DNA from: Actinomadura sp. DC4
Lineage (GTDB): Bacteria > Actinomycetota > Actinomycetes > Streptosporangiales > Streptosporangiaceae
Assembly: GCF_030406325.1 (NCBI RefSeq)
Contig: NZ_JAUEQY010000028.1
Coordinates: forward strand, 62,001 to 126,000
Length of the DNA: 64,000 bases
Direction of reading: 5' to 3'
Shown here piece by piece: positions 10,715 to 19,131 of the stretch (position 1 is its first letter; every line of letters begins with the position of its first letter). The notes below the pieces were generated by a model. The model was given only the letters and a program-made list of their open reading frames with translations, was not told the origin of the DNA and did not search any database. The position numbers were made by a program, and so were the translations under genes.

Positions 10715-10861
10715 TCAGTGGTGGCGGACGACGTGGTGCACGACGTGGTGGTGGACGACGTGGTGATGGACCACGTGATGGGAGTGGCCTCCGCAGGCCG
10801 TGAGCGCCAGAACCAGGGCCGCACCGATCACGCCCGCCGAACGAAGCCGCTGAACCTTCAC
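10715..10861 (-). CDS. Tiny histidine-rich lipoprotein (48 aa)
   Basis: GTG at 10859-10861 is preceded by a strong GGAGGGG Shine-Dalgarno at 7 bp. The product starts VKVQRLRSAGVIGAALVLAL and reaches the lipobox LTAC (Cys23) followed by GG, a canonical lipoprotein signal peptide. The mature part is only 26 residues and is almost all His and Val, in VHHHVV-type repeats (13 His, 8 Val), ending VVRHH. This suggests a surface-anchored metal-binding (Zn/Cu/Ni) or pH-sensitive peptide. I know no named family. It lies between the TetR gene and the TPR-HTH regulator, insulated from the latter by a perfect hairpin (10941-10982). An inverted repeat at 10896-10920 sits in its promoter region. Confidence 0.7.
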   Translation of the reverse strand: MKVQRLRSAGVIGAALVLALTACGGHSHHVVHHHVVHHHVVHHVVRHH

Positions 10862-11029: not shown

Positions 11030-12328
11030 TCAGAGGTCCATGCAGGACAGCGCCCGCTGGAACGCCGCCTTCTGGCCGTCGGGCTGGCCGGCCGCGCCGA
11101 GCAGCTCGGCCAGGTCGAACCACGTGCGGGCGGCGGGGCGGTGCGCCTCCATCTTCTCCAGGTAGTCGACCGCCTGCGACAGGGCGTTCACCGCCTCCTC
11201 GCGCTGGCCGAGCCCTTCGTAGGCCTCGCCGAGGACCGTGTACGCCTGGGCGATGGCATGGCCGGCGGTGTCCTTCAGAAGGTCGGTCGCGCGTGTGGCG
11301 AACGCGGCCGCCTCGACGGGCCGGCCCAGCGCGAGCTCGGCCCGCGCCTGGATGGTGAGGCACCAGGCCATGTCGACCGTGCTCGCCGAGCTCGACTCGA
11401 GCTCGCGCTCGGCCTTGAGGAGCACCTCGCGCGCCCGCTCCGCGTCCTGCGGACGGGCGATCAGGAGGAACAGCGCGTAGGCCGTGCGCAGGCGGCTGAG
11501 GTTACGCGGGTCGTTCTCCTCGCCGAGCAGCGCGATGGCGCGTTCGGCGAGCCGCAGCGCGGCGTCGAACTCCCCGCGCTGCTCCGCGACCAGACCGGCG
11601 TTCCAGTACGCGGCCATCAGCGCCCGCGGGGTGCCGATGGCCTCGGCACGCTCGATCAGCGCCTGGGCGAGCTGGTTGGCGTACGCCAGGTCGCCGCGGA
11701 AGTAGTACGCCGCGAGCACCGTGGCGCCGAGCATGACCATGGAGTCGCTCCACTGGCCGCCGCCCTCGGTGAGTCGCTCCAGCGCCTCCTCCCCGGCGCG
11801 GATGCTCGCCGCGAGGTCGCCGCGCTCGCGGAGACAGCGGCTGAGCGCCGTGTGGAGCTCGGCCCAGTGGTCCGGGTCGGCCTGCGCCGAAGTCAGCTCT
11901 GCGGCCCGCTCAAGCTCGACGATGGCCTCTTCGAGGGAGCCGGTCGCCTCCAGTGCCAGGGCGTGTCCCCAGCGCGCCTCGTGGGCGAGCGCCGGCAGGT
12001 CGGCGAGCGCCGGATGGGACAACACCTCGGCGAAGCAGGTACGGGCCTCGTTGGTGGCACCGTTCTGCAGGGCGATCTGGGCGTACCTCATCGTCTCCTG
12101 GAGGCCGGTCATCGCCTCCTCGGTCACGCCCGTCGTGAGGTAAGCGGTCGAACAATCTAGCTTCCGTGCCAGCAGAGCCACCATGCTGGGGGCAGGCGTG
12201 CGCTTGCCGCTCTCAATGAGTGACACATAGCTGTCGGAGAGCTCCGGCCACGCTAGCTGGGCCTGAGACATGTTCTTCCTCAAGCGCAGGTTACGTATCC
12301 GTTCGCCCAGCGATTCTTGACTTGGCAT
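11030..12328 (-). CDS. XRE-family HTH regulator with TPR sensor domain (RRNPP-like layout)
   Basis: A 432-aa protein. The N-terminal Cro/XRE HTH (about 7-62) reads LGERIRNLRLRKNMSQAQLA..SYVSLIESGKRTPAPSMVALLARKL. It is followed by roughly nine helical hairpins of TPR character (about 75-430), e.g. AHEARWGHALALEATGSLEEAIVELERA and AYTVLGEAYEGLGQREEAVNALSQA. This is the build of peptide-sensing RRNPP regulators (PlcR, PrgX, NprR, Rap). It is divergent from a 48-aa exported peptide gene only 52 bp away, the usual place for the cognate signal. The ATG at 12326-12328 is chosen because the HTH begins there and AGAGGTGG precedes it. Peptide binding is inferred, not visible. It ends before a strong hairpin. 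Confidence 0.85.
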   Translation of the reverse strand: MPSQESLGERIRNLRLRKNMSQAQLAWPELSDSYVSLIESGKRTPAPSMVALLARKLDCSTAYLTTGVTEEAMTGLQETMRYAQIALQNGATNEARTCFAEVLSHPALADLPALAHEARWGHALALEATGSLEEAIVELERAAELTSAQADPDHWAELHTALSRCLRERGDLAASIRAGEEALERLTEGGGQWSDSMVMLGATVLAAYYFRGDLAYANQLAQALIERAEAIGTPRALMAAYWNAGLVAEQRGEFDAALRLAERAIALLGEENDPRNLSRLRTAYALFLLIARPQDAERAREVLLKAERELESSSASTVDMAWCLTIQARAELALGRPVEAAAFATRATDLLKDTAGHAIAQAYTVLGEAYEGLGQREEAVNALSQAVDYLEKMEAHRPAARTWFDLAELLGAAGQPDGQKAAFQRALSCMDL

Positions 12329-12380
12329 CCCGCCCACCTCTACAAGAAAGTGACAGAACCACACGAAAGGATAGAAAAGA

Positions 12381-12527
12381 ATGTCACACCTTCGCAGGGC
12401 CGTGGCCTTGATCATTCTGGCGATGATGGGCTGGTTCTTGGCGTTCGGTTCCATCGGAGCGGGCATCACGGCCGCGTCCGCCGCTTCTACCACCGCGAAC
12501 GAGACCGTGCCGATCGCCTGCTGCTGA
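12381..12527 (+). CDS. Small exported peptide, candidate signal for the TPR-HTH regulator
   Basis: A 48-aa frame with AAAGGA nine bases before ATG. It shows a positively charged start (MSHLRR), a hydrophobic core (AVALIILAMMGWFLAFGSIG) and a signal-peptidase-like site around ITAASA/AST (A32-S33-A34). That leaves a 13-14-residue tail ending TTANETVPIACC with a terminal Cys pair. A strong hairpin begins 9 bp after the stop. Position (divergent, 52 bp from a TPR-HTH gene) and design (signal plus short C-terminal peptide) match pro-peptides of quorum-sensing pairs. Alternative readings are a small secreted bacteriocin-like peptide or a membrane microprotein. Confidence 0.65.
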   Translation: MSHLRRAVALIILAMMGWFLAFGSIGAGITAASAASTTANETVPIACC

Positions 12528-12536
12528 CCGCACTGA

Positions 12537-12560
12537 CCTGCTGACTTTCTGGTCAGCAGG
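12537..12560 (+). terminator. Terminator after the exported peptide gene
   Basis: CCTGCTGAC (12537-12545) pairs perfectly with GTCAGCAGG (12552-12560) over a TTTCTG loop, starting 9 bp after the peptide stop codon. This makes the 48-aa frame a discrete monocistronic unit and supports it being a real gene. Confidence 0.7.
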
Positions 12561-12855
12561 GCTGTCGGTCGAGGGCGTACCGGCGACGGTGCGCCCGACC
12601 GGGATCGACGCTTCGGCGGCCCGCGAGCGCCGGATCGTCGATCCCGGGCACATCGCAAGAAGCCGGGAGTGGCCTAGAGCGGCCACAGCCGGACGGTGCC
12701 GAGACCGGTTCCCGCAGGTGGAGACCGCGGCCTCGGACCGCCCGCGGTGGCGTCGTGCCTCTGCGGGGAGCCGCGGAATTGCGGCCACCGCTCCGCTGTT
12801 GTCGGTGGGGCGGTGACACGGAGGCGCCGCGTCTTCGACCCAGGGAGCTGAGGAA
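12561..12855. other. Gap between peptide terminator and thioredoxin gene
   Basis: About 295 bases without a supportable gene. Frames open on both strands (e.g. 12589-12816) are Arg-rich, have no ribosome binding site and no family resemblance. It presumably holds the thioredoxin promoter, but I see no clear hexamers. Confidence 0.3.
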
Positions 12856-13215
12856 ATGGCCACGACGACACTGACCGCCGCCAACTTCGACCAGACGGCA
12901 GCCGGTGAGGGCATCCTGCTGGTCGACTTCTGGGCGAGCTGGTGTGGCCCGTGCCGCATGTTCGCGCCGGTGTACGACCGGTCGTCGGCCAAGCACGAGG
13001 ACATCGTCTTCGGCAAGGTCGACACCGAGGCCGAGCAGGACCTGGCCGGACGCTTCGAGATCACGTCGATCCCCACGATCATGGCGATCCGCGACGGCGT
13101 CATCGTCTTCGCCCAGCCCGGCGCGCTGCCCGAGCAGGCGCTGGAGAGCCTGATCGAGCAGGTCCGCGCCCTCGACATGGACGACGTGCGCAGCAAGCTC
13201 GCCGCCCAGTCCTGA
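12856..13215 (+). CDS. Thioredoxin
   Basis: A 119-aa thioredoxin fold with the redox motif FWASWCGPCRMFAP (Cys30, Cys33), Asp24 in LLVDFWA, and the cis-proline in TSIPT (Pro73). It has no signal peptide or membrane anchor, so it acts in the cytoplasm as a general disulfide reductase fed by thioredoxin reductase (not in the window). The start follows GAGGAA. The helix after the active site (YDRSSAKHEDIVFGKVDTE) matches actinobacterial secondary thioredoxins rather than the trxA next to trxB. Confidence 0.93.
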   Translation: MATTTLTAANFDQTAAGEGILLVDFWASWCGPCRMFAPVYDRSSAKHEDIVFGKVDTEAEQDLAGRFEITSIPTIMAIRDGVIVFAQPGALPEQALESLIEQVRALDMDDVRSKLAAQS

Positions 13216-18356: not shown

Positions 18357-18475
18357 CCCTCTTCAGGTCCGGGCTTGGGTGGCCGTGACGGCCGGGGACC
18401 CAGGACAGCGGCGGATCCGAAACCGCACGCCGGAGCAGGCCTCGCAGGGCCACAGGCCACGCGTCATCGGTCTTG

Positions 18476-18620
18476 GGTCACCGGCCACGGGTCACGGGTC
18501 GCGGGCAACCGGCCACGGTCACGGGTTGCGGGCAACCGGCCACGGGTTGCGGGTCGCCGGCTGCGGCTGCGGCTGCGGCTGCGGGCACGGGCCACCGGCC
18601 GCCGGTTGCGGGCCGCGGAT
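18476..18620. repeat. Imperfect tandem repeats GGCCACGGGT / CGGGTTGCGGGCAACCGG
   Basis: About six near-repeats of a GGCCACGG(G)TCACGGGT / GGGTTGCGGGCAACC unit run head to tail and end in a (GGCTGC)n tract near 18560-18580. The frames it opens are Arg/Gly/Pro-rich filler with no start signal. It looks like slippage-prone non-coding DNA at the border of a duplicated segment. Confidence 0.6.
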
Positions 18621-18660
18621 GAACGGCCATGGTGGCTGGGGTCGTAGGGGCCCGGTCCGC

Positions 18661-18950
18661 CTGCCGCCAGTCCGCCCGCGTCGACCTGGCCGACCGTCAC
18701 CGCCCTTCCTCCGTTTACCCGCCCTGACCCGGCGGTCGGCCGCCGGCGTCTACCCGGCCGATCCTCGCCGCCTGCCCGCCGCCTGCCCGCCCCTCACCCG
18801 CCGTGAGCCGCCGGCCGGTCACGGGGCGTCGGGCGTTGGACTTCGCCGCCGTGGCGGCGCGAAGGTCCGGGACGGTGACGAACCGGATCCCGGGGGCAGG
18901 TCGCGGATCATCGCGGGCGGCCCCGCAGTGCCACCAGCCGGCGACGGGTG
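18661..18950 (-). pseudogene. Decayed partial copy of the deacetylase 3' end (tandem duplication)
   Basis: This stretch aligns with 18966-19256 at a constant offset of about 303-307 bp. On the minus strand the old copy still reads IRFVTVPDLRAATAAKSNA, against FEFVTVPDLLAATAAKSKA at the C-terminus of the intact deacetylase. The downstream flank is also duplicated (GACCTGGCCGACCGTCACC, compared with CACCTGGCCGACCGTCACC). Substitutions and small gaps show the duplication is old. No promoter or start remains. Confidence 0.7.
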
Positions 18951-19131
18951 TTGCAGGGATCCCATCTGCGGTCAGTTCGCCTGTGTCCACCTGGCCGACC
19001 GTCACCCGCTTTCCGGCCGCTGACCGCTCCGACTCGGCGGCCGGCGTCTCCCCAGCTGATCGTCAGCGCCTTCTCACCGCTGACCGCCCTGAGTGAGTCG
19101 CCCCCCTGAGAGCAGCGGCCGGTCGCGGGCG

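What the first reader, a model, noticed from the sequence alone, without database searches (positions are those of the whole stretch)
11030..12560. RRNPP-like pair: TPR-HTH regulator divergent from a 48-aa exported peptide
Seen: a Cro/XRE HTH plus TPR protein (432 aa) and, 52 bp away on the other strand, a short frame with AAAGGA, a charged start, a hydrophobic core, an AxA site and a 13-14-residue tail ending NETVPIACC, closed by its own hairpin terminator. Known: in Firmicutes, RRNPP regulators (PlcR-PapR, Rgg-SHP, NprR) are encoded next to their signal pro-peptides. Inference: this is a peptide quorum-sensing cassette in an actinobacterium, where such systems are little described. The terminal Cys pair is unusual for an imported signal and hints at a disulfide or other modification.
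Basis: partly seen in the sequence, partly recalled or inferred. Interest (0 to 1): 0.8.

Follow-up and report, generated by a model that had tools for sequence, protein, structure and literature searches.

The report
Two-cysteine signal peptide with TPR regulator
Next to a DNA-binding regulator, this soil actinomycete carries a tiny gene for an exported-looking peptide ending in two cysteines, and the same pairing recurs in several actinomycete families, which suggests a peptide-signalling system of a kind described mainly from another group of bacteria; the signalling is inferred from sequence and has not been measured.

Summary
A 432-aa HTH + TPR regulator (window 12328..11030, minus) lies 52 bp from a divergent 48-codon frame (12381-12527, plus) with an export-like start and a tail ending CC. 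The frame sits beside the orthologue in 8 of 8 Actinoallomurus genomes. Of 195 regulator homologues compiled, 119 have a divergent short frame ending CC*; a wide-flank recheck of 20 of the others found 8 more (127 of 195, 8 family codes, 118 of 162 genomes). Chance controls give 0-0.8%. The frame evolves as coding DNA with a fast tail. The cysteine pair is the hallmark; residues before it are hypervariable. One derived clade (17 rows) has Cys-less tails. Four regulator residues (T203, A239, N243, N276) go with CC tails and are lost together in the Cys-less clade and often in peptide-less lineages; three map to TPR helix-A positions. PlcR is the best natural HTH+TPR match among solved structures. 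Most likely: an RRNPP-like cassette (export, cleavage, re-import, TPR binding). Import, binding and density dependence are untested. Copper genes or a His-rich lipoprotein often follow the regulator, so metal handling is a candidate output. Ten searches of the open library found no description.

The parts
11030..12328 (-). HTH (Cro/XRE) + TPR regulator, 432 aa, candidate peptide receptor
   Evidence: orthologues in 8 of 8 genus genomes at 72-82% identity besides itself
12329..12380 (.). 52-bp shared promoter region between the two divergent genes, with AAAGGA (12366-12371) before the peptide start
   Evidence: sequence; near-identical in the 8 Actinoallomurus loci
12381..12527 (+). 48-aa exported-looking precursor peptide ending CC; predicted mature tail about 13-14 residues (..STTANETVPIACC)
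   Evidence: coding substitution pattern
12537..12560 (+). hairpin after the peptide gene (no T run)
10715..10861 (-). His-rich small lipoprotein (48 codons, GTG start, lipobox LTAC), codirectional with the regulator and 168 bp behind it; candidate target
   Evidence: a like gene follows the regulator in 6 of 8 genus genomes clearly, G005 gave only a fragmentary hit, G006 none

Best explanation
It is an RRNPP-like peptide-signalling cassette of actinomycetes. SHOWN by sequence comparison: a short coding gene with an export-like N-terminus and a C-terminal Cys-Cys is kept beside an HTH-TPR regulator in several families, and a few TPR residues of the regulator change together with the kind of tail. 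INFERRED: the 48-aa precursor leaves by the Sec pathway; signal peptidase cuts near the AxA site; the tail of about 13 residues collects outside; an oligopeptide importer brings the tail or its C-terminal part back; the terminal Cys-Cys lies against T203/A239/N243/N276 in the TPR groove while the variable residues before it give strain-level specificity; binding changes the regulator's grip on the 52-bp shared promoter and on the genes behind it (a His-rich lipoprotein here, copC-copD/ctaG in many relatives).
For: Pairing: 8 of 8 in the genus; 119 of 195 homologues divergent, plus 8 of 20 rechecked ones in convergent, tandem or slightly more distant places, so the linkage survives rearrangement; chance 0-0.8%. 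Coding: pN/pS 0.45 in the signal part, 0.73 in tail positions -3 to -12, 0.22 in the regulator over 175 overlapping pairs; 0.48, 0.60, 0.18 over 39 disjoint pairs. Tail: 110 different last-ten sequences among 119. Co-variation: of 85 columns conserved in CC rows, exactly 4 (203, 239, 243, 276) are lost in the 17 Cys-less rows, and none of these 4 is on the lost list of any of 34 nested CC-keeping subclades; with corrected labels, independent pairs of CC against peptide-less rows (Cys-less rows left out) go the same way 6.7 times and the other way 0.0 (at least 3 of 4 residues; median p 0.016, range 0.016-0.063). TPR register: 239 = position 2, 243 = position 6; 203 = position 6 (from the alignment). 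Receptor kinship: PlcR. Importers: 17 PF00496 matches in the genome.
Against: The co-variation rests on one Cys-less clade and few independent peptide-less lineages; the test does not reach 0.05 when at least 2 or all 4 residues are required (median p 0.125 and 0.25). Columns 35, 270 and 266, not lost in the Cys-less clade, rank as high as the four in peptide-less rows. 13 of 127 CC rows have E243; 5 of 127 keep only 1 or 2 of the 4 residues, and 5 of 48 peptide-less rows keep 3 or 4. Paralogue B lacks a peptide in 3 of 8 and paralogue C in 8 of 8 genus genomes by the rules used. Synteny with copC/copD is also seen in peptide-less relatives (9 of 35).
Confidence: 0.68

Rival explanations
1. 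The peptide is a secreted metal or redox ligand rather than a census signal: the terminal Cys-Cys binds Cu(I) or is oxidised by copper, and the regulator reads the state of the returned peptide to control copper uptake or delivery (copC, copD/ctaG, His-rich lipoprotein).
For: copC and/or copD-CtaG directly and codirectionally behind the regulator in 31 of 88 loci with 1.5 kb downstream held (18 of 49 CC, 4 of 4 Cys-less, 9 of 35 peptide-less; families PF04234, PF05425, PF09678); His-rich lipoprotein behind the window's regulator and in 6 of 8 genus genomes; CC invariant while the rest of the tail varies.
Against: All 4 Cys-less loci tested keep copC and copD, so the cysteines are not needed for that link; none of the 14 f21-family loci among the 88 shows the copper genes within 1.5 kb, and L297 has hisC-, EamA- and nrd-like neighbours there (named from sequence except EamA); a pure ligand need not have a hypervariable tail; the synteny also exists without a peptide.
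Confidence: 0.13
2. A small membrane-active peptide (toxin or bacteriocin-like) kept in check by the divergent XRE regulator, with no signal recognition.
For: Short hydrophobic peptide beside an XRE-type regulator, a common layout of such pairs (recalled).
Against: AxA-like site and hypervariable C-terminal tail; regulator TPR residues go with the tail type; no toxin or bacteriocin family above chance (NCBIfam and Pfam scans of 18 peptides, best E 0.018).
Confidence: 0.08
3. The peptide acts outside the cell (surface or matrix peptide, or ligand of a membrane receptor) and the regulator merely controls its gene; the TPR domain binds something else.
For: Export-like start is the best supported property; about a quarter of the 195 regulators lack any peptide found here (48 of 195) and so must do without one.
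Against: Regulator positions that track the tail type lie in TPR helix A rather than in the HTH.
Confidence: 0.11

Closest known systems
PlcR-PapR (RRNPP family, Bacillus cereus group)
   Same: HTH followed by TPRs and a small propeptide gene next door; PlcR (2qfc) is the best natural HTH+TPR match among solved structures (E 5.3e-13 over profile positions 3-188)
   Different: different phylum; peptide usually divergent from the regulator; tail ends in an invariant Cys-Cys; 432 aa against a 293-residue PlcR chain; copper genes often behind the regulator
NprR-NprX and Rap-Phr (RRNPP family)
   Same: long TPR domain matched by profile (NprR 4gpk E 2.8e-6; RapH 3q15 E 7e-5); Sec-type propeptides (recalled)
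   Different: I know of no terminal Cys pair in those signals (recalled)
Rgg-SHP and ComR-ComS
   Same: HTH-TPR regulators with short peptides; ComR HTH matched (7n1n)
   Different: SHP-type precursors are smaller and leave by PptAB (passages of PMC9765709); here a Sec-like start with an AxA-like site
NsdA family and FxSxx-COOH system TPR proteins (NCBIfam NF053720, NF040586)
   Same: TPR proteins with weak matches to the regulator (39.8 and 44.9 bits)
   Different: far below the curated cut-offs of 75 and 300 bits, so not members

Membership tests
RRNPP (RRNPPA) peptide receptors | HTH (in most subfamilies) followed by a TPR array | tested here: met
   Pfam HTH_3 and TPR models
RRNPP (RRNPPA) peptide receptors | Sequence kinship to a known RRNPP receptor over HTH and TPR | tested here: met
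   58-row profile to PlcR 2qfc E 5.3e-13, positions 3-188; NprR 119-356 E 2.8e-6. TPR matches are promiscuous: designed TPR proteins and kinesin light chain also match in that call.
RRNPP (RRNPPA) peptide receptors | Propeptide gene next to the receptor gene | tested here: met
   8 of 8 in the genus; CC-ending frame at 127 of 195 homologues, Cys-less one at 17 more
RRNPP (RRNPPA) peptide receptors | Propeptide has an export signal and carries the signal at its C terminus | tested here: inconclusive
   K/R start, hydrophobic core and AxA-like site by inspection and simple rules, variable tail; no signal-peptide predictor and no mature form seen
RRNPP (RRNPPA) peptide receptors | Peptide binds in the TPR groove | tested here: inconclusive
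   Indirect: four TPR-domain positions go with tail type; no model could be made
RRNPP (RRNPPA) peptide receptors | Signal is secreted, processed and re-imported by an oligopeptide permease | not testable with these tools
   17 PF00496 matches in the genome show only that candidate importers exist
RRNPP (RRNPPA) peptide receptors | Response depends on cell density | not testable with these tools
   needs culture experiments
NsdA family regulator (NF053720) | Score above NCBIfam cut-off | tested here: not met
   39.8 bits against 75
FxSxx-COOH system TPR protein (NF040586) | Score above NCBIfam cut-off | tested here: not met
   44.9 bits against 300

The most novel reading that the evidence does not exclude
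A class-wide family of actinomycete peptide signals defined by a free C-terminal Cys-Cys and read by a dedicated groove in HTH-TPR receptors, in which the thiol pair makes the signal conditional: copper or oxidation outside the cell decides whether the peptide can be imported or bound, so that a population signal and the copper or redox state are read together and drive copC-copD/ctaG. One lineage (Streptosporangium and relatives) has escaped the thiol requirement with a W..P-type tail and a matching groove.
Probability: 0.2. Interest if true: 0.92.

Novelty: new variant of a known kind. Interest (0 to 1): 0.8.

Why it matters
Actinomycete signalling is usually described in terms of small molecules; a paper on RRNPP detection says so for the phylum and analysed only Firmicutes and viruses (passages of PMC10075063). 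Here is a gene pair that recurs in 8 family codes of the class, with a defined precursor peptide, a candidate receptor and four named residues to mutate. It makes the question of whether actinomycetes use imported peptide signals directly testable. Streptomyces is known to need an oligopeptide permease (BldK) for development (passage of PMC4398421; its reference list cites a 1996 title on import of an extracellular signal); whether that signal has anything to do with CC peptides is open, and I have no evidence for it. If the Cys pair matters chemically, it would be a signal that carries its own redox or metal check.

Tried and rejected
Leader peptide or chance frame: rejected, because the frame is divergent from the regulator, is conserved, shows a coding substitution pattern and exceeds the chance controls.

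RiPP precursor with modification enzymes: no recurrent gene that I recognised as a modifying enzyme in the neighbour clusters; only 14 clusters were printed and ten neighbour proteins went to Pfam, so this is weak.

Lineage-wide copper function: copC/copD is found in 31 of 88 loci, in peptide-less ones too, so I keep it as a candidate output only.

A shared operator: 8-mers recur in the 117 intergenic stretches far above shuffles (up to 20 stretches against 4-5), but related rows and the regulator's own ribosome-binding site explain much of it; no operator is claimed.

Peptide profile search (A1): beyond the loci already known it gave only weak hits that I did not follow. Phage collection: one match to the regulator in an unannotated metagenomic phage record, not followed. 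Beyond the class: 1 of 23 loci read has a convincing CC frame (L343).

One search read the flanks in the wrong orientation for minus-strand loci; redone. One search crashed on a name error; redone. One search used 56 of 58 rows with a first grouping; superseded. In some searches eight rows were labelled peptide-less that one search then showed to have a CC peptide; one search repeats the test with mended labels.

Literature: ten searches of an open-licence library without preprints; six papers opened, passages only.

Full report
Observation. The window lies in an Actinoallomurus-like genome: named Actinoallomurus records carry the regulator at 72-82% identity, and the window is contig C32:62001-126000 of genome G000. 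The regulator (12328..11030, minus; 432 aa) has an HTH_3 domain and TPRs. The divergent 48-codon frame (12381-12527) has K/R-type start residues, a hydrophobic core, an AxA-like site and the tail ..STTANETVPIACC. The hairpin behind it is stable (z -4.4) but has no T run.

Conservation in the genus. All 8 genomes of the genus held have the orthologue (72-82% to the window's protein in the other seven), and all 8 have the divergent peptide (46-57 aa), starting 51-60 bp from the regulator and ending CC. Paralogue B (50-53%) has a divergent peptide ending HCC in 5 of 8; the other 3 have none in 900 bp. Paralogue C (about 40%) has none in 8 of 8 by the rules used.

Conservation beyond. I compiled 195 regulator homologues from 162 genomes (compiled, genome count). 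By a fixed rule (divergent frame of 28-110 codons, start within 260 bp, ending CC*) 119 of 195 score. A further 17 have a like peptide without cysteine (tails such as ..GWNHPG..GPWGYPI), 3 have ..CCYE or ..CCYN.. variants, and 56 had none. With about 4 kb on each side where the contig allowed, 8 of 20 of the last group proved to have a CC peptide in another arrangement: convergent behind the regulator, in tandem before it, or just beyond the distance limit. The total is then 127 of 195, in 118 of 162 genomes and 8 family codes. Names are known for few: Nonomuraea gerenzanensis has a divergent CC peptide, and Streptomyces goshikiensis, Streptomyces sp. ADI95-16 and Streptomyces sp. NBC_01707 carry annotated hypothetical proteins or frames ending CC behind the regulator on plasmids; that is 4 of 8 such loci read, out of 16 plasmid records matched. 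Outside the class 1 of 23 loci read has a convincing case; two of the 23 are of the same class.

Controls. The same rule finds a CC frame in 2 of 631 window stretches, 6 of 742 stretches of other loci, 0 of 193 reverse strands of the same upstreams and 2 of 1930 dinucleotide shuffles. Over 175 pairs of CC loci with regulators at least 80% identical, codon positions 1, 2 and 3 of the peptide changed 1589, 1131 and 2292 times, and the median pN/pS was 0.55 against 0.22 for the regulator (pairs share rows). Split up, pN/pS is 0.45 for the signal part, 0.73 for tail positions -3 to -12 and 0.22 for the regulator; in 39 disjoint pairs 0.48, 0.60 and 0.18. That the CC codons show no amino-acid change is built in, because rows were chosen by CC. 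No Pfam or NCBIfam family matches 18 diverse peptides beyond chance.

Tail and groove. The 119 tails have 3.5-4.0 bits of entropy at positions -3 to -9, and 110 distinct last-ten sequences. The Cys-less clade is nested among CC rows in a FastTree tree of 195 regulators (label W: 2 changes), so its tail is most simply a derived one. Of 85 columns conserved in at least 88% of CC rows, exactly four have been lost in the 17 Cys-less rows: T203 (mostly Q), A239 (mostly L), N243 (G or A) and N276 (mostly R). Among 34 nested CC-keeping subclades, including one that has lost 23 other conserved columns, none shows any of these four on its list of lost columns. Peptide-less clades lose them again: a 20-row clade has lost 203, 243 and 276, and a 10-row clade 239, 243 and 276. 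In the 56 rows then labelled peptide-less, which were not used to choose the columns, the four rank 1, 3, 5 and 6 of 86 by loss; with mended labels they rank 1, 2, 5 and 7 of 81, with columns 35, 270 and 266 among them. Counted on independent pairs of the tree (CC against peptide-less, Cys-less rows left out), possession of at least three residues goes with a CC peptide 6.7 times and against it 0.0 times, median p 0.016; with at least two or all four residues the test does not reach 0.05. Residue 239 is TPR position 2 and 243 position 6 by Pfam alignment, and 203 is position 6 by alignment to a consensus TPR protein; that such positions line the peptide groove is recalled. The register of 276 was not settled.

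Kinship. A 58-row profile of the regulators matches PlcR (2qfc, E 5.3e-13, positions 3-188), NprR (4gpk, 2.8e-6), the ComR HTH and RapH among solved structures, and also designed TPR proteins and kinesin light chain. It falls far below the NCBIfam cut-offs for NsdA and FxSxx-COOH TPR proteins. No structure could be predicted.

Neighbourhood. In 31 of 88 loci with 1.5 kb downstream held, a CopC and/or CopD-CtaG gene follows the regulator in the same direction: 18 of 49 CC, 4 of 4 Cys-less, 9 of 35 peptide-less. In the window a His-rich small lipoprotein follows the regulator, clearly so in 6 of 8 genus genomes. This suggests a metal-related output, but the synteny also exists without a peptide and is not seen in the family coded f21.

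Reading. The pairing of a coding, exported-looking, CC-ending peptide with this regulator is well supported (I would put it above 0.9). That the tail is the ligand of the TPR domain after re-import is the best explanation (0.68) and rests on co-variation and kinship; that the output is copper handling is a guess supported by synteny. Whether it is a membership case: the RRNPP features that could be tested by sequence were met, those that need biochemistry were not testable, so I call it RRNPP-like. In print: ten searches of the held library showed no description; passages of PMC10075063, PMC13220807, PMC9765709, PMC4748050, PMC4255298 and PMC4398421 were seen, no paper in full.

Noticed in passing
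window 10715-10861 (-): Small His-rich lipoprotein gene behind the regulator, kept in most genus genomes; looks metal-binding.
   Followed up: partly
window 12856-13215 (+): Thioredoxin-like gene (WCGPC motif, recalled) follows the peptide gene; a like gene also follows the decayed second cassette in G001. Whether it is kept elsewhere was not tested.
   Followed up: no
L305, about G001:C1:7347700-7348700: Decayed tandem second copy of regulator and peptide next to the intact cassette, with a GC-rich tandem repeat inside the regulator remnant.
   Followed up: partly
L063, L071, L072, L059-L061: Peptides of other genera share the ending GPRVHCC, unlike the hypervariable tails elsewhere.
   Followed up: no
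L267, L268, L271: Variant peptides in Streptosporangium-type genomes where the CC is followed by YE or a longer stretch, next to a second, diverged regulator copy.
   Followed up: no
window 11030-12658 (-): The regulator's reading frame stays open through the antisense of the peptide gene, giving a 542-codon mechanical ORF.
   Followed up: no
window 18379-19023 (+): Low-complexity open frame rich in G, H, A, T repeats.
   Followed up: no
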